DNA of 47,344 nucleotides from Phycisphaerae bacterium. Lineage in GTDB: Bacteria > Planctomycetota > Phycisphaerae > Sedimentisphaerales > Anaerobacaceae. This document shows, piece by piece, positions 241 through 11,032 of the stretch. The stretch spans positions 1 through 47,344 of the forward strand of contig JAGOLX010000046.1 of the NCBI GenBank assembly GCA_017993835.1, read 5' to 3'. Within the stretch, counting starts at the first letter, position 1. Every line of letters starts with the position of its first letter. The notes under the pieces were generated by a model. The model did not search any database, was not told the origin of the DNA, and saw only the letters and a program-made list of their open reading frames with translations. Made by a program: the position numbers and the translations under genes.

Positions 241-2298
241 ATGACGTCGATCAAGGATCTGATCACGAGTCCGCGTCCGGGATCGGCGACGGCCTCTCGC
301 ACGATTGCGGATCAAGCCCGTCGGGACCGCCTGTCCTATTTCCCGTCGCCCGACAACTGGCAGGATGAGGTTCTGTACTTCCTGCTGCCCGACCGGTTCA
401 GCGACACGAAGAATCGCCCGATGCTCAAACGCGCCGAGATCCGCAAGCTCCGCGCCACCGCGTCCCGTCCGAACTGGAACTGGCAGAAATGGGCGGCTTC
501 CGGAAGGCTCTGGCAAGGCGGCACGATCCAAGGCATCGCCAAGCGATTGCCCTATCTGCAGGCCCTCGGGATCTCCGCGATCTGGGTCGGCCCGGTGCTC
601 AAGCAGCGCTGCCATCTCGATACCTATCACGGCTACGGCGTCCAGGACTTCCTGGAGGTCGATCCGCGGTTCGGAACCCGGGAAGACCTGCTGTCGCTGG
701 TCCAGGCGGCGCATCGCAAGGGGATTCGCGTCATCCTGGACATCATCGTCAACCACACAGGCGACGCCTGGGGGTATCTGCCCTTGGGCGAGCCGTTGAC
801 CGGCTGCAAAGAATCGCCGGCTTACCGCGCGTGGCCGGGGTATTACGGCGATCCGTCCTGCCGGGAGACGTTCGGCTGGCAAGTCGCCTGGCGAGGGGTC
901 GGCCAGGAGGCCATGGCCACCGATCGTCACGCCATCGCCACGCCGGACCAGGCGGTGTGGCCCAGCGAGTTTCAGGATGGGGACAGGTTCACCCGGGCGG
1001 GTGTGGGCAGCCTGGACAGCGGCGCCCCGGGTGATCCGCATGCGGAGTTCCGCCGGACCGATTTCTTCGCGCTGAAGGACTTGGCGCTCGATGTCGCTCC
1101 GACGCTGGAGTACCTCGTCGATTGCTACAAGTACTGGATTGCCATCTCGGATGTGGACGGTTTCCGCGTGGATACGGTCAAGCACATGGAGTTGGAGACG
1201 GCCCGGAACTTCGCCGGGGCGATTCGGGAATTCGCGGAAACGCTCGGAAAACGCAACTTCCTGGTCATCAGCGAGATCGCCGGCGGCGCGGAGTATCAGG
1301 CCCTGTACCTGGACCATATGAGCATCCTCGGCCGGAACATGACCGCGGCCCTGGACATTGGAGGCGCCCGGACGATCCTGACCGGCGTGGGCAAGGGCCT
1401 CCTCGCGGGCAGCGAATACTTCAAGGGCTTCGATCCCTACAACGACAGGTTCGGCTCGCACCGCAACAACGGGGGCCGGCACGTCTCCATCCTCGACGAC
1501 CACGATCATGTGTCCGGGGACAAGGTGCGTTTCTCTGCGGAGATTCCCGATGAATACGACGTGAAAGACCACCAGGTGGTCGTCCCGACGGCCATCCAAC
1601 TCTTCACGCTGGGCATTCCGTGCATCTACTACGGCACCGAGCAGGCGTTCGCCGGCCCCGCCCAGTCGCAGGTGGAACACGTCCGCGGCGAGGGCTGGAA
1701 GGACCGCTGCAACTACGGCGACCGCTACTTGCGCGAAGCCATGTTCGGCCCGGCGTACCCTCGCGCTCATTTCAACAAGCCGATCGAGAGGCAGATCAGC
1801 GAATCCGATGCGTCGTTGCCCGGATTCGGGCCCTTTGGCACGAGCGGGAAGCACTGCTTCGACACGTCCAGTCCCGCGTTCATCCGGATTGCCGGGTTGT
1901 GCAGGCTGCGAAGCGAGCACCTGACGCTGCGTGTGGGCCGGCAGTACTGTCGCGAGGTCCGTCTGTCCAATGAAAGGTTCGCGATGCCCCCCGCGGGGCA
2001 GATCGTTGCCTGGAGCCGGGTCCTCGACACGTTGGAGTACGTGTGTGTCGTCAATCCGCACGCGACCGAGAAGCGGGGCGGCGACGTGATCGTCGATGTG
2101 ACGCTGTGTCCGGCGGGCACCGTGTTCGAGGTGATTGCCAATACCGCGCACACCGCCGCGGGTAGCGCCTATGGAGCCAGCCACCCCGTTGGATCGACGC
2201 TCCAGGTTCAGGGGCGACGGTCTCCCTGCGAACCAGCCTATCTCGTAATCCGCGACATCCCGCCATGTGAAGTCGTGGTCCTCGCAAAACGCCTGTGA
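241..2298 (+). CDS. GH13 alpha-amylase family glycosyl hydrolase
   Basis: The 685-residue product is a GH13 (alpha-amylase superfamily) enzyme expected to hydrolyse or rearrange alpha-glucans. The four conserved regions are visible. Region I is DIIVNH (D167, N171, H172). Region II is GFRVDTVKH, with nucleophile D311. Region III has E345 in LVISEI as the acid/base. Region IV has H421-D422 in the stretch ILDDHD, where the more usual residue before the His is Asn. The N-terminal DRFSD motif (about residue 50) and GGTIQGI (about residue 92) are typical of maltogenic or alpha-amylase subfamilies. No signal peptide is seen, so it probably acts in the cytoplasm on storage glycogen or imported maltodextrin; that role is inferred. 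The start is supported by AAAGGA 7 bases upstream and a matching promoter. The subfamily and exact product are not resolved. Confidence 0.9.
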   Translation: MTSIKDLITSPRPGSATASRTIADQARRDRLSYFPSPDNWQDEVLYFLLPDRFSDTKNRPMLKRAEIRKLRATASRPNWNWQKWAASGRLWQGGTIQGIAKRLPYLQALGISAIWVGPVLKQRCHLDTYHGYGVQDFLEVDPRFGTREDLLSLVQAAHRKGIRVILDIIVNHTGDAWGYLPLGEPLTGCKESPAYRAWPGYYGDPSCRETFGWQVAWRGVGQEAMATDRHAIATPDQAVWPSEFQDGDRFTRAGVGSLDSGAPGDPHAEFRRTDFFALKDLALDVAPTLEYLVDCYKYWIAISDVDGFRVDTVKHMELETARNFAGAIREFAETLGKRNFLVISEIAGGAEYQALYLDHMSILGRNMTAALDIGGARTILTGVGKGLLAGSEYFKGFDPYNDRFGSHRNNGGRHVSILDDHDHVSGDKVRFSAEIPDEYDVKDHQVVVPTAIQLFTLGIPCIYYGTEQAFAGPAQSQVEHVRGEGWKDRCNYGDRYLREAMFGPAYPRAHFNKPIERQISESDASLPGFGPFGTSGKHCFDTSSPAFIRIAGLCRLRSEHLTLRVGRQYCREVRLSNERFAMPPAGQIVAWSRVLDTLEYVCVVNPHATEKRGGDVIVDVTLCPAGTVFEVIANTAHTAAGSAYGASHPVGSTLQVQGRRSPCEPAYLVIRDIPPCEVVVLAKRL

Positions 2299-2447
2299 GC
2301 CCAGGTGGATTCGTCCTCGATTTTGAACCCGGGGTGGGCGGGCGCCGTATCTGTCGAGGGGTGAAGGGCTGCACGGTCGCCGACTCGCTGCGGCAGGATG
2401 CCGGCACGCGCAGGCGGCAAGGCATCGGTGAGCAGGAGTAACGCTTC

Positions 2448-3491
2448 ATGTCGGATCACATGGTCTTTCAGGGGTGTACGGGCTGGGAAAAGGAAGCGAT
2501 CCGATCCTATTGGCTGCAGAAGATGCCGCGTATTGAGCGGCTCTTGACCCGATTTCCCGAGGACCAGCGGGAGTTGCGACTGACCGCGACGCGTAAGCCC
2601 AAACGCTTCGAGGTCCGCGCGGCGCTGCTGCTGCCCACCGGGTCGCTGGTGGCCGAGGCGTCTTCCTCGACCGATCGGGATGCGGTCGATGCGGTGGCCA
2701 GCAAACTGGCCGGCGTGGTCCGTCGCCACAAGGAGGTGATCCGTCGGGAGCATCTGTACCGCAAGAAACAACATCGGGAGGAACTGTCGCGGCGCGTCGA
2801 GGCATTGCTCGAACCCCAGACGGAGAAGCTGGATCAGAATGCCTTCTTCGATCTGCTGGCTCCCCTGATGGCGCGACTGCGCGATCACGCGCACCGAGAG
2901 TTGACCCTGGCCCAGTTTCAAGGACAAATCGGACAGGAGGAGGTAACGGTGAACGACCTGCTCGACGAGACGATTCTGCGGGCCTGGACGCAGTTGGACC
3001 GCAGGGACCTGGCGGTGCCCCTCGATGTCTGGCTGACCAGGCTCCTGCACGACGTGCTCGACGAACAGACCGCCCACGCCCAGGGCGTCGTATCTCTCGA
3101 CGGGGAAGTCGATGGACTCGATGCTGGTCGCGAGGCGGCGGCCGGACGCCTGCCCGACGATGCGCCGGTCTGGGAGGAACCTCAGACGGTCACCTTTGAC
3201 GACGTGCTGCCCAGCCGTGAGGTAGCCGAGCCTTGGGAGAAGCTGGCAGCCATCGACCAAATGCGCTGGGTTCTCGATCAACTGAGCGAAGTGGCGTCTG
3301 TCCGTCGGAGGGCGTTCACCTTGCACCTGTTGGATGGATGGGAGCCGGAAGACGTCGCCATGATTCAGAGCCGCTCCGTCGCCGAGGTGCGTGCGGATAT
3401 CGAAGCGGTCCAGGAAATGCTCCAGAGACGCATGGACGGCCAACCAGAGGTCTCCCGCTCCGGGATTGGATCGGCCCGGCGCGGGCAGTAG
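2448..3491 (+). CDS. HPF/RaiA-like domain fused to sigma-70-like regions
   Basis: The 347-residue protein has two recognisable parts. Residues about 15-100 resemble the ribosome hibernation factor HPF/RaiA fold: a helix with a repeated basic pattern, a strand with FEVRAALLLPTG, then DRDAVDAVASKLAGVVRRHK, the usual second helix. Residues about 165-205 (LLDETILRAWTQLD, then PLDVWLTRLLHDVLDE) look like sigma-70 region 2, and residues 270-328 (LDQLSEVASVRRRAFTLHLL, then EPEDVAMIQSRSVAEV) look like region 4 with a helix-turn-helix. A linker at 210-265 is acidic. The start is set by AGGAG at 2434-2438, 9 bases before the ATG. Inferred role: a link between ribosome state and transcription. Whether the sigma part still binds RNA polymerase or promoter DNA is unknown, since its region 2 is short. 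The GH13 gene ends 149 bases upstream. Confidence 0.7.
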   Translation: MSDHMVFQGCTGWEKEAIRSYWLQKMPRIERLLTRFPEDQRELRLTATRKPKRFEVRAALLLPTGSLVAEASSSTDRDAVDAVASKLAGVVRRHKEVIRREHLYRKKQHREELSRRVEALLEPQTEKLDQNAFFDLLAPLMARLRDHAHRELTLAQFQGQIGQEEVTVNDLLDETILRAWTQLDRRDLAVPLDVWLTRLLHDVLDEQTAHAQGVVSLDGEVDGLDAGREAAAGRLPDDAPVWEEPQTVTFDDVLPSREVAEPWEKLAAIDQMRWVLDQLSEVASVRRRAFTLHLLDGWEPEDVAMIQSRSVAEVRADIEAVQEMLQRRMDGQPEVSRSGIGSARRGQ

Positions 3492-3650
3492 ACGCCTGCG
3501 AGGGGTCCTCCGGTCGCCAAAGTGCGATCCATGGATCAGCCCTGTCGTAACTCAGTTAATGGCAAGAGGTTAGGTTGGTTCTTCTGTGATGTGCCGCGAA
3601 GCACTGTCACGGCGGGGAGGGAGCGACAGGAAAAATCCTCGAAAAATGGC

Positions 3651-3679
3651 TTGCCATCGGCCATGCACCTGCATAGAAT
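3651..3679 (+). promoter_or_regulatory. Promoter for rplS
   Basis: TTGCCA (3651-3656) and TAGAAT (3674-3679) are 17 bases apart, which fits a housekeeping promoter. It would give a leader of about 40 bases to the GTG at 3726. The remainder of the 3492-3725 gap shows no gene, hairpin or RNA that I can identify. Confidence 0.5.
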
Positions 3680-3725
3680 ACGGGTTTTACTACGCTGATG
3701 ATTTGTGACCATCGGGAGATTACTC

Positions 3726-4091
3726 GTGAAAACCAAGTTGCTGGATGCAGTTGAGAGCAAGAGCCTGAAGAAGGAGATACCGCATTTTGAGGTTGGCGAT
3801 ACCGTGGACGTGCATTGCCGCATCCAGGAAGGCGATAAGACCCGGACGCAGATCTTCTCCGGCACGGTCATCGCCCGCAAGGGTCGGGGCATCAGCTCGA
3901 GTTTCACGGTCCGGCGGATCGTCGCCAACGAAGGCGTCGAGCGGCAATTCCCGCTCCATTCGCCCAATGTGTTGAACATCGTGCCGACCCGCAGCGGCAA
4001 GGTCCGACGGGCCAAGCTGTACTTCCTGCGCGACAGGACGGGCAAGGCCGTCAAGCTCTCGCAGAGGCACAGCGAGCACACGAGCAAGTAA
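3726..4091 (+). CDS. rplS: 50S ribosomal protein L19
   Basis: L19 lies at the interface of the 30S and 50S subunits. The product shows the family's pattern throughout: FEVGDTVDVHCRI near the start, the RTQIFSGTVIARKG segment, FTVRRI, and VERQFPLHSPNV followed by a basic RRAKLYFLR tail. I chose the GTG at 3726, giving 121 residues (usual length about 115-120), because GGGAG at 3714-3718 stands 7 bases before it. An in-frame GTG at 3705 would add seven residues and has no such site. In many bacteria rplS follows rpsP, rimM and trmD. Here it stands alone behind its own promoter. Confidence 0.93.
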   Translation: MKTKLLDAVESKSLKKEIPHFEVGDTVDVHCRIQEGDKTRTQIFSGTVIARKGRGISSSFTVRRIVANEGVERQFPLHSPNVLNIVPTRSGKVRRAKLYFLRDRTGKAVKLSQRHSEHTSK

Positions 4092-4697: not shown

Positions 4698-6188
4698 ATG
4701 AGTATGGAGAGAGAATCTCATCGCTGGGCACCGGTGGACGATCTTCCGACCGATTGGTTGGACTTGAAGAATCGCCAGACCGATGCCCTGATCGCGGCTT
4801 GGTGGGAACGAGCCGACGAACTCCGAGAGACGAAGGCCTACGACGATTTTCTGCTGAGACTGCGACGCCAGTGGGCTATTGAGACGGGGATACTTGAACG
4901 GTTGTATAGTCTCAGCGATGGGGTGACGAAGACACTGATAGAGAAGGGGTTTGACGCTGCCATCATTAGCCATGAGGATACAGACCGCAACCCGACGGAT
5001 GTTATCGCCGTCATTCAGGATCAGTTCGCCGTTGTTAATGGCTTGTACCAGTTCGTATCCGGACAGCGCCCTCTTGGCACATCGTATATCAAGGAACTCT
5101 ACACCGCTTTGACTAAACACCAGACAACGTGCGAAGGGCGCGATACGCTTGGGCGAGATGTTCGAGTCACGTTGCCGCGGGGGGAGTGGAAACGTCTTCC
5201 GAACAATGTTGAGGGTCCAGGGGACTACGTACTTGAGTTCTGTCCGCCCGAACAGGTGGAATCTGAGATGGACCGTCTGCTGGCGATGCACGGGAAGCAC
5301 GAGGAGTGGGGGGTTCCGGTGTATGTTGAGGCAGCTTGGCTGCACCACCGGTTTACACAGATTCACCCGTTTGCAGATGGTAATGGGAGAGTGGCGCGTT
5401 GTCTGGCGACGGTGGTATTACTCAAGGCCAAGTGGTTTCCCCTTGTCGTAACACGGGCGCATCGTGAGGAATACATCTCCGCGATCAGGCAGGCCGATAA
5501 GGGGGATATGCGAAGACTGGTCGACCTCTTTACCTCTCTTCAAAGCAGGGCGGTTAGGGAGGCTTTTGACCTGACCGAGGAATTGCGCGCCGAGCAGATC
5601 GCTGTTGGTACCATTCTTTCTGCAGTCAAGGGCAAGTTTTCTCGCCTCCGCGAAGAGACGGCCACTAAGAAGCGGCAGGTTACAGTCACAGCGGACACCC
5701 TTCAGTCTGCAGCGGTCATGAGAATCAAAGATCTCGCCAAGGAGGTGAAGAAGGCGATTGCTCCGGAGGGACAAGAGTTTAGTGCCTATTGTACTCACGC
5801 GGCCAGCGCCAATGATGAGAAGGCGGACTACCACCAGTTCCAAATTGTCCAATGTGCCCGCGCTCTCGGGTATTTTGCCAACATGGAAGCATATCGATCC
5901 TGGGTCAATCTTGCGATTCAGACGACTACCCGGTCAGAAATCCTCTTCTCTCTTCATGGGATGGGGAAAGGCTTGAGTGGTATCATCGCGTGTTCGGCCA
6001 TGTTCTACACAAAGGAATCAACCGATACAAAACACACGGTGATTGGGGAGATTGTGCCTTTGTGCACAGAACCGTTCACGTTCACGTATGAAGAGGAGCC
6101 GAACGAGGTGCAAGAGCGGTTCAGGAAATGGCTTGATGATACACTGATTCTGGGTCTGGATCAGTGGCGCAGGGGACTTGGCGCGTGA
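4698..6188 (+). CDS. Fic family protein (probable AMP transferase)
   Basis: Fic proteins usually transfer AMP from ATP to a hydroxyl on a target protein. The 496-residue product carries the intact signature HPFADGNGR at residues 223-231, with catalytic H223, D227 for metal and R231 for phosphate. The N-terminal part has AIETGILERLYSLSDGVT (about 56-73), a pattern I recognise from long Fic proteins, and residues 270-345 are charged and probably helical. The function of the C-terminal 150 residues is unknown. The gene is compositionally unlike its neighbours: two 60-base lines counted by eye gave 53% and 48% G+C against 62% in dnaG, which suggests horizontal acquisition. No small antitoxin-like gene fits in the 108 bases upstream. 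GAGGT lies 12 bases before the ATG. The target is unknown. Confidence 0.88.
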   Translation: MSMERESHRWAPVDDLPTDWLDLKNRQTDALIAAWWERADELRETKAYDDFLLRLRRQWAIETGILERLYSLSDGVTKTLIEKGFDAAIISHEDTDRNPTDVIAVIQDQFAVVNGLYQFVSGQRPLGTSYIKELYTALTKHQTTCEGRDTLGRDVRVTLPRGEWKRLPNNVEGPGDYVLEFCPPEQVESEMDRLLAMHGKHEEWGVPVYVEAAWLHHRFTQIHPFADGNGRVARCLATVVLLKAKWFPLVVTRAHREEYISAIRQADKGDMRRLVDLFTSLQSRAVREAFDLTEELRAEQIAVGTILSAVKGKFSRLREETATKKRQVTVTADTLQSAAVMRIKDLAKEVKKAIAPEGQEFSAYCTHAASANDEKADYHQFQIVQCARALGYFANMEAYRSWVNLAIQTTTRSEILFSLHGMGKGLSGIIACSAMFYTKESTDTKHTVIGEIVPLCTEPFTFTYEEEPNEVQERFRKWLDDTLILGLDQWRRGLGA

Positions 6189-9244: not shown

Positions 9245-11032
9245 GTGGCGAAAAAGGGAATGAGGTCGAAGAAAGCAAAGGATATGAACCAGACGGAAGT
9301 CCACGGTACGTCCGATATAGTCAAGCCCGAGGCTCAGGACCCGGAGTTGCTGATCAAGACATTGGTCGCGAGAGGCAAGAAGAAAGGGTTCCTGACCTAC
9401 GAGGAGGTCAACGAGTCTCTGCCGGACGACGCTGTCACCTCCAAGCAACTCGATAAGCTCATGTCGACGCTCGACGAGATGGGTATTCCCCTCGTCGACG
9501 AGAGCGACGCCGAAGCCCATGGGCCCGGCAAGATGGACGAGGAGTTCGAAGAGGACGCCGAGCCGGCGGACGAGGAGGAGAGCCCCGAGGTCGAAGCGGA
9601 GGCGGACGAGGACGAAGCCCTGGAAAAGGAGTTCGCTGAAAGCGAGGTCTCCCATCGGATCGATGACCCTATTCGCATGTATCTGACCCAGATGGGCCAG
9701 ATTCCCCTCTTGACCCGCAAAGACGAGATCGCCTTGGCGAGGAAGATCGAAATCGCTCGGATGGTCTTTCGCCGCAAGATGCTTCAGTCCGACTACTGTG
9801 CCCGCAACGCGGTGGAGCTGATGCAGCAGGTCTCCGACGGCTCCATGTCGTTCGACCGGACCATCAAGACCGGCACCACCCCTCTGACCACCAAGGGCGT
9901 CATCAAGAAGCGGATGACGGAGAACCTCAAAACGATTGCTGATCTTCTCGATATCGACCAGAAGCTCTTCAAGAACATCTGTGCCGGCGGGGACGAGGCG
10001 AAGGTGCAGGCGGACGCCAGGCATCTCCGGAGGAACCGTCGCAAGATCGCGGCCCTCCTGGAGGAGCTGAGCCTGCGGACCAGCCGCATTCAGCCGATGA
10101 AAATCAAGCTCCAGGGCGTCTGCGAGAAGATGCGGCAGCTCGAGAAGACCATCCAGACCGGTGTCACCGAGACCATGACGGCCGACGATATCCTGGCCGC
10201 CAGGCAGGAGTTCGCCGGCCTGCAGGAACTCGTCCTGGAGATGCCGGATCAGTTGGAGAAGAAGCTGCGGACGATGGAGCGGATCTTCGCCCAGTACGAA
10301 GAAGCCAAGCGGACCCTGTCCAGCGCCAACCTCCGCCTGGTCGTTTCCATCGCCAAGAAGTATCGCAACCGCGGCCTGAGCTTCCTGGACCTCATCCAGG
10401 AGGGCAACACCGGCCTGATGCGCGCGGTGGACAAGTACGAGTATCGGCGCGGCTACAAGTTCAGCACGTATGCCACCTGGTGGATTCGCCAGGCCATTAC
10501 CCGGGCCATCGCCGACCATGCGCGGACCATCCGTATCCCGGTCCACATGATCGAGACGATGAGCCGGATTCGCAGCGCCTCGAAGATCCTCCACCAGGAA
10601 CTGGGACGCGAGCCGACCATCGAGGAAATCGCCGGCGAGGTCGGCATGACCGTCCAGGAAACCCGCAGGGTTCTGAACATCTCCAAACACCCGATCAGTC
10701 TGGATCGGCCCATCGGCGATAGCGAGGATTCCTACTTCGGCGACTTCATCGAGGACGACGATATCGACTCGCCTGTGGCCTCCGCGACGCAGGAGATGCT
10801 CAGGGAGCGCATCGACATGGTCCTCAAGACCCTCTCCTACCGCGAGCGGGAAATCATCAAGCTCCGCTACGGCATCGGCGACGGCTACACCTACACGCTC
10901 GAGGAAGTCGGTCGGATCTTCAAGGTCACGCGGGAGCGCGTCCGCCAGGTCGAAGCCAAGGCCATCCGCAAGCTCCAGCACCCTGTGCGGGCCCGCAAGC
11001 TCGAGGGGTTCCTCGACCACAAATCCGCGTAG
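9245..11032 (+). CDS. rpoD: RNA polymerase primary sigma factor
   Basis: This is the housekeeping sigma-70 factor that directs RNA polymerase to most promoters. Region 1.1 is visible at about residues 35-80, then a very acidic linker (about 85-135). Region 1.2 starts at about 138 ([12 protein letters not shown]). A non-conserved insert of about 190 residues follows. Region 2 runs from about 361 ([32 protein letters not shown]), region 3 follows, and region 4 begins near 529 ([12 protein letters not shown] and [10 protein letters not shown]). All core motifs are intact, at 595 residues. The GTG start has GGAG at 9233-9236, 8 bases upstream. It follows dnaG by 152 bases and is closed by the terminator at 11056. 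Confidence 0.97.

What the first reader, a model, noticed from the sequence alone, without database searches (positions are those of the whole stretch)
2448..3491. HPF-type ribosome factor fused to sigma-70-like regions
The sequence shows an HPF/RaiA-like N-terminal fold, then segments resembling sigma regions 2 and 4 with an acidic linker. HPF is known to stop ribosomes in stationary phase, and sigma factors choose promoters. A single protein that joins the two could report ribosome dormancy directly to transcription. The fusion may be common in this lineage, but I know of no described function.
Basis: partly seen in the sequence, partly recalled or inferred. Interest (0 to 1): 0.75.

Follow-up and report, generated by a model that had tools for sequence, protein, structure and literature searches.

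The report
Ribosome-hibernation domain fused to degenerate sigma
A planctomycete protein joins a ribosome-hibernation (HPF) domain to an ECF sigma-factor module that has lost its promoter-binding charges; this undescribed but recurrent architecture may link ribosome dormancy to a sigma-factor partner protein rather than to DNA.

Summary
The ORF at 2448-3491 encodes 347 aa: an HPF/S30AE domain (residues 1-105), then an ECF-type sigma module (sigma2 about 126-215, disordered linker, sigma4 263-331). One family profile hits solved sigma factors (E 2.5e-15) and solved HPFs (E 4.5e-11). An AlphaFold2 model matches HPF (Z 15.0) and ECF sigma (Z 14.9). Relatives pass Pfam cut-offs on both halves.

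The fusion is not confined to this lineage. I found 22 fusions in 21 genomes of nine planctomycete families, some keeping only sigma2. It is patchy: one genus of 45 in its own family, and 5 of 9 genomes in that genus.

In every fusion the conserved region 2.2 Gln is Asp/Glu (21/21; Gln in 38/40 ECFs). Region 2.4 and the region 4.2 helix are net acidic (-1.2 and -1.3, against +4.7 and +2.7 in ECFs). dN/dS is well below 1 in every domain, so this is not decay.

Best reading: a hibernation-type protein carrying a pseudo-sigma that binds a sigma partner (anti-sigma or RNA polymerase), not promoters. The partner and ribosome binding are untested. I found no description of this fusion in the papers searched.

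The parts
2434..2438 (+). Shine-Dalgarno-like AGGAG, 9 nt before the ATG
   Evidence: read directly from the sequence
2448..3491 (+). HPF-pseudo-sigma fusion gene (347 aa)
   Evidence: ORF list; full-length orthologues in four other genomes of the genus, 61-76% identical
2448..2762 (+). HPF/S30AE domain, residues 1-105
   Evidence: PF02482 above cut-off; AlphaFold2 beta-alpha-beta-beta-beta-alpha fold; Z 15.0, rmsd 1.4 over 92 residues to V. cholerae HPF
2763..2822 (+). helical connector, residues 106-125, continuing HPF helix 2
   Evidence: single predicted helix 76-124
2823..3092 (+). sigma2-like domain, residues 126-215 (regions 2.1-2.4)
   Evidence: family profile against sigma factors; model against sigma-E region 2, Z about 10
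2964..2966 (+). Asp173, at the conserved Gln of ECF region 2.2 (DLxQE becomes DLLDE)
   Evidence: alignment with own-genome ECFs; acidic in all fusions
3030..3095 (+). region 2.3/2.4 equivalent, residues 195-216, lacking the basic residues of true ECFs
   Evidence: net charge fusions -1.21 against ECF +4.70, p=4e-8
3093..3233 (+). disordered acidic sigma2-sigma4 linker with SLDG and DVLPS motifs
   Evidence: pLDDT below 50 over 215-270; DVLP/DLLP/DVVP kept in distant relatives
3234..3440 (+). sigma4-like helix-turn-helix, residues 263-331
   Evidence: model helices 264-279, 284-295, 300-307, 311-331; Sigma70_r4_2 and PhyR_sigma-like above cut-off in relatives
3372..3413 (+). turn and recognition-helix equivalent, residues 309-322 (RSVAEVRADIEAVQ), acidic
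   Evidence: net charge fusions -1.31 against ECF +2.65, p=4.5e-8
3705..4091 (+). rplS (ribosomal protein L19), next gene downstream; conserved neighbour in four of the five fusion genomes of the genus, not an obligate partner
   Evidence: neighbour survey; identification from sequence

Best explanation
It is an HPF-family (ribosome-hibernation fold) protein whose C-terminal extension is an ECF-sigma-derived module (sigma2, usually sigma4) that has lost promoter recognition. Shown here: both folds, their common ancestry with HPF and ECF sigma factors, purifying selection, family-wide loss of the DNA-contact charges, and replacement of the region 2.2 Gln by Asp/Glu. Inferred mechanism: under starvation or stress the HPF domain docks on the 30S subunit while the pseudo-sigma binds a protein that normally binds sigma factors. 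An anti-sigma factor is the likeliest partner (a mimic in the manner of PhyR), core RNA polymerase the next. Ribosome dormancy would thereby be linked to sigma availability through protein-protein binding, without this protein ever choosing a promoter.
For: Both folds. The sigma4-less paralogue L116 still models as HPF plus sigma2 (sigma-E region 2 Z 9.5 over 88 residues). Loss of DNA contacts in all fusions: region 2.4 net charge -1.21 (n=14) against +4.70 (n=40); recognition helix -1.31 (n=13) against +2.65; the sigma4-less forms show the same in region 2.4. Region 2.2 Gln to Asp/Glu in 21/21 distinct fusions, Gln in 38/40 ECFs. PhyR_sigma-like passes its Pfam cut-off in L063 and L066 and is the better sigma-type hit in L066. 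The best structural matches of the sigma half are anti-sigma-bound sigmas (EcfG-NepR, SigW-RsiW, CnrH-CnrY) and PhyR, aligned as one unit at rmsd 2.6-3.3. Fusion HPFs form one group apart from canonical HPFs (99/99). No stand-alone HPF of this subtype was found: every hit below E 1e-16 lies in a fusion. Purifying selection in every domain.
Against: No partner, ribosome binding or expression was shown. No gene neighbour is conserved, so no anti-sigma points to itself. sigma4-less members cannot mimic a complete sigma2-sigma4 pair. HPF basic residues are only partly kept: about 8 of 13 canonical basic positions in the window's genus, fewer elsewhere, so ribosome binding is not certain. The placing of sigma2 against sigma4 in the model rests on pTM 0.62. 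The ECF control set includes near-duplicates, so the p-values are optimistic.
Confidence: 0.57

Rival explanations
1. The sigma-derived part has become a ribosome-side or dimerisation extension, like the C-terminal domain of long HPF or the CBS module of archaeal HibA, with no link to transcription left.
For: The region 2.2 Gln is always acidic, which argues against ordinary core binding, and the DNA contacts are gone. sigma4 is dispensable. No regulatory neighbour is conserved. HPF domains are known to gain ribosome-contacting extensions (PMC13324472).
Against: The sigma2-sigma4 arrangement and the linker motifs typical of sigma factors are kept across very distant members. sigma4 is under purifying selection, dN/dS 0.06-0.14.
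Confidence: 0.25
2. A working ECF sigma factor whose activity is gated by its own HPF domain: ribosome-bound when ribosomes idle, released to direct promoters.
For: The sigma fold is intact. ECFs with fused regulatory domains are well known (PMC8999054). The region 2.2 Asp/Glu-x-x-x-Glu frame is partly kept.
Against: Basic residues of regions 2.4 and 4.2 are lost and the region 2.2 Gln is replaced in all fusions sampled. Several members lack sigma4. The own genome already has about 90 sigma-70 matches, and this is among the weakest of them.
Confidence: 0.12
3. A sub-case of the best explanation, stated apart because it predicts a different partner: a dual hibernation factor whose pseudo-sigma occupies core RNA polymerase without promoter binding and so parks polymerase beside hibernating ribosomes, doing in one protein what Rsd and RMF/HPF do separately in E. 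coli. Its confidence is contained in that of the best explanation.
For: The sigma linker motifs that thread the polymerase are kept while DNA contacts are lost. Joint silencing of both machines is known physiology (PMC6904343).
Against: The region 2.2 Gln, a core-contact position in E. coli sigma-70 (own knowledge), is changed in every member.
Confidence: 0.22
4. Assembly artefact or decaying gene.
Against: The same fusion occurs in 21 independent genomes, including single-contig ones (G344, G412), and is under purifying selection in every domain.
Confidence: 0.01

Closest known systems
Short HPF / RaiA (YfiA), PF02482
   Same: Same domain fold; Z 15.0 to V. cholerae HPF; several ribosome-side basic residues kept
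   Different: Divergent subtype, grouped apart from canonical planctomycete HPFs; always followed by a sigma-derived module; the host also has a canonical short HPF next to ptsN/HPr-like genes
Archaeal HibA (HPF/RaiA fused to a CBS module; PMC13324472)
   Same: HPF domain made multi-domain by a fused second module
   Different: The second module is sigma-derived instead of CBS; bacterial; HPF at the N terminus
Long HPF (lHPF)
   Same: HPF domain plus C-terminal extension
   Different: The extension is a sigma2-linker-sigma4 module, not the 100S dimerisation domain
PhyR (sigma-like domain plus receiver; NepR-binding anti-anti-sigma)
   Same: Degenerate sigma2/sigma4 fold fused to another domain; PhyR_sigma-like passes its Pfam cut-off in L063 and L066; structure Z 11.1
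   Different: HPF in place of a receiver domain; sigma part placed after HPF; no NepR or EcfG neighbour recognised; some members lack sigma4
ECF sigma factors with fused regulatory domains (ECF41, ECF56 and others; PMC8999054)
   Same: ECF sigma2-sigma4 module with a fused extra domain
   Different: This one lacks the basic promoter-contact residues that ECFs of the same genome keep. The review text contains no mention of HPF or ribosome

Membership tests
HPF/RaiA (PF02482) | Profile match above the curated score | tested here: met
   28.6 against 23.7 bits. NCBIfam's stricter equivalog TIGR00741 is not reached: 24.4 against 40.9
HPF/RaiA (PF02482) | Beta-alpha-beta-beta-beta-alpha fold | tested here: met
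   Model and fold search, Z 15.0, rmsd 1.4 over 92 residues
HPF/RaiA (PF02482) | Conserved basic ribosome-facing residues | tested here: inconclusive
   About 8 of 13 canonical basic positions kept in the window's genus; several lost in distant members
HPF/RaiA (PF02482) | Binds the 30S decoding region and blocks translation | not testable with these tools
   needs ribosome binding or cryo-EM
ECF sigma-70 | Profile match over sigma2 and sigma4 | tested here: met
   Query alone is below cut-off; the relative L012 passes TIGR02937; family profile E 2.5e-15 to PDB sigma
ECF sigma-70 | Basic -10 and -35 contact residues in regions 2.4 and 4.2 | tested here: not met
   Net acidic on average in the fusions against net basic in 40 ECFs
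ECF sigma-70 | Conserved Gln of region 2.2 (core polymerase contact) | tested here: not met
   Asp/Glu in 21/21 fusions; Gln in 38/40 ECFs
ECF sigma-70 | Promoter-specific initiation with core polymerase | not testable with these tools
   needs in-vitro transcription
PhyR-type sigma mimic | PhyR_sigma-like profile | tested here: inconclusive
   Window protein 15.8 against 27 bits; relatives L063 29.9 and L066 31.5 pass
PhyR-type sigma mimic | C-terminal receiver domain | tested here: not met
   No receiver hit; HPF present instead. Not filed as PhyR
PhyR-type sigma mimic | Binds a NepR-type anti-sigma factor | not testable with these tools
   needs binding assay
Long HPF | lHPF C-terminal dimerisation domain | tested here: not met
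   C-terminal half is assigned to sigma; no lHPF C-terminal domain among Pfam hits

The most novel reading that the evidence does not exclude
A single bacterial protein that hibernates ribosomes and at the same time sequesters part of the transcription machinery (core polymerase or an anti-sigma factor) through a pseudo-sigma, so that translation dormancy directly resets sigma usage.
Probability: 0.35. Interest if true: 0.88.

Novelty: new variant of a known kind. Interest (0 to 1): 0.66.

Why it matters
Ribosome hibernation and sigma switching are known to be coordinated at entry to stationary phase, in E. coli by separate proteins (Rsd and RMF/HPF, PMC6904343). A protein that physically joins an HPF domain to a sigma-derived module would be a direct bridge between the two, in a phylum with very large ECF sigma repertoires. 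The same loss of promoter contacts in every member shows selection for a non-promoter use of the sigma fold, and that makes a clear prediction to test: a sigma-binding partner that co-purifies with stressed ribosomes. It also warns against annotating such proteins as plain sigma factors or plain HPF.

Tried and rejected
Artefact, misassembly or pseudogene: rejected by 22 fusions in 21 genomes and purifying selection. The notion that the 'sigma' label comes only from the historic Pfam name 'Sigma 54 modulation protein': rejected, because the C-terminal half matches sigma-70 (ECF) models and structures independently of HPF. Conserved operon partner: rejected. rplS-yraN-tatD-dnaG lies downstream in the window, L001, L002 and L003, but the G006 copy sits elsewhere, three of the four genus genomes without a fusion keep the rplS block (no rplS match in G003), and distant members share no neighbour. 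Stand-alone HPF of this subtype: none found in 382 genomes. Nine literature searches returned no HPF-sigma fusion; subscription papers and preprints are not in that library. The single scan of genome contigs found only three same-group loci, so phyla other than Planctomycetota were not properly searched. The promoter/terminator scan of 2250-3800 found nothing for this gene; its only promoter-like site, at 3651-3679, precedes rplS.

Full report
Observation. The ORF at 2448-3491 (+) codes for 347 aa after a good ribosome-binding site. Pfam places S30AE/HPF at residues 16-97 above its cut-off. For the window protein alone the C-terminal half gives only sub-threshold sigma-70 hits, so the sigma claim needed relatives.

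Relatives. Full-length orthologues (61-76% identity) occur in four other genomes of the same genus. They are absent from the other four genomes of the genus and from the other 44 genera of the family. A profile search of the phylum, repeated with a wider alignment, found distant fusions of the same architecture. With the window's genus this makes 22 fusions in 21 genomes of nine families (f1, f30, f35, f36, f61, f69, f77, f78, f80; family labels are the tool's own). Two are on single-contig genomes (G344, G412). Genome G320 has two fusions 17 kb apart, one with sigma4 (L011/L115) and one without (L116).

Assignment of both halves. L012 passes NCBIfam sigma70-ECF (49.4 against 42.9 bits). L063, L066 and L015 pass Pfam cut-offs for S30AE and Sigma70_r4_2 in the same protein, and L063 and L066 also pass PhyR_sigma-like. 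The profile of the 12-sequence alignment A3 hits solved sigma factors (SigG1 E 2.5e-15; sigma-E 6.6e-14 over 112-327) and solved HPFs (4.5e-11 over 8-109). The AlphaFold2 model (mean pLDDT 74.9, pTM 0.62) has an HPF fold, a continuous helix into a sigma2 bundle, a disordered linker and a sigma4 helix-turn-helix. Second-look structural comparison gives Z 15.0 to V. cholerae HPF and Z 14.9 to Bartonella EcfG bound to NepR; SigW-RsiW, CnrH-CnrY and PhyR follow. The sigma4-less L116 models as HPF (Z 13.7) plus sigma2 (Z 9.5 to sigma-E region 2).

What the sigma half has lost. Aligned with ECF sigma factors of the same genome and of other planctomycetes, the fusions have a mean net charge of -1.21 in region 2.3/2.4 against +4.70, and -1.31 in the turn and recognition helix of region 4.2 against +2.65 (both p about 4e-8). 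The Gln of the region 2.2 DLxQE motif is Asp or Glu in all 21 distinct fusions checked and Gln in 38 of 40 ECFs. The sigma4-less forms show the same in region 2. The control set holds near-duplicates, so the p-values are optimistic, but the separation is nearly complete. sigma-type linker motifs (SLD..., D[VL][LV]P) remain in several distant members. dN/dS in the genus is well below 1 for HPF (0.07-0.13), sigma2 (0.08-0.37), the linker (0.10-0.48) and sigma4 (0.06-0.14). The sigma half is therefore kept by selection but not as an ordinary promoter-recognition factor.

What the HPF half has kept. Canonical basic positions are partly retained: about 8 of 13 in the window's genus, fewer in distant members. 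Fusion HPFs group apart from 31 canonical planctomycete HPFs (99/99 support, with long-branch warnings). A search of 382 genomes with the HPF part alone found no stand-alone member of this subtype: all hits stronger than 1e-16 lie in fusions, and the next are canonical HPFs at 4e-12 or weaker. The host genome also has a canonical short HPF beside ptsN/HPr-like genes, so the fusion is an addition to ordinary hibernation.

Context. In the window, L001, L002 and L003 the gene precedes rplS-yraN-(Fic)-tatD-dnaG. In genome G006 it lies elsewhere, next to a PAC2-family gene, and rplS has another neighbour. In G002, which has no fusion, PAC2 stands directly before rplS, as if the fusion had been lost. 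No anti-sigma gene was recognised as a conserved neighbour in distant members.

Mechanism. Shown: the anatomy, ancestry, distribution, loss of DNA contacts and selection. Inferred: the HPF domain binds the small subunit under stress, and the pseudo-sigma binds a protein that normally binds sigma factors. I favour an anti-sigma factor (a mimic in the manner of PhyR) because anti-sigma-bound sigmas and PhyR are the best structural matches of the sigma half and because the core-contact Gln is gone. Core RNA polymerase remains possible, because the linker motifs survive and because sigma4-less forms still have the main core-binding domain. A purely ribosome-side extension is the strongest rival without a transcription link.

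Known relatives. HPF domains with fused modules are known: long HPF, and archaeal HibA with a CBS module (PMC13324472, whose section on domain associations names no sigma fusion). ECF sigmas with fused regulatory domains are known (PMC8999054; no mention of HPF or ribosome). Coordinated silencing of polymerase and ribosome by separate proteins is known (PMC6904343). Nine literature searches returned no HPF-sigma fusion. This is a new variant of a known kind, with an unusual partner domain. The functional claim needs bench work.

Noticed in passing
L115 and L116 (G320 contig C44, 3000-36000): One genome carries two HPF-sigma fusions 17 kb apart, one with and one without sigma4, amid genes that by eye look like stress or dormancy genes (BON domains, PfkB-type kinase, DksA-like protein, citrate synthase).
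   Followed up: partly
window 10304-10981 and whole genome G000: The principal sigma gene (rpoD-like) lies after dnaG in the same window; the genome has 96 sigma-70 matches.
   Followed up: no
window 4698-6188: A Fic-type gene sits between yraN and tatD in the window and in L001 but is absent there in the other genus members examined.
   Followed up: no
window 3093-3233 (residues 216-262); L062 and L064: The linker motif D-[VIL]-[LVP]-P recurs in distant fusions, and two sigma4-less members end at a similar GHDI-x-DPR stretch just after sigma2.
   Followed up: partly
G225 (L066): The only HPF-family match in this genome has the strength expected of the fusion itself, so the fusion may be its sole HPF; inferred from E-values and not checked row by row.
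   Followed up: no
L014 (G149:C529:1-1040): The fusion is split into two frames by a short run of N, an assembly gap and not evidence of a real frameshift.
   Followed up: yes
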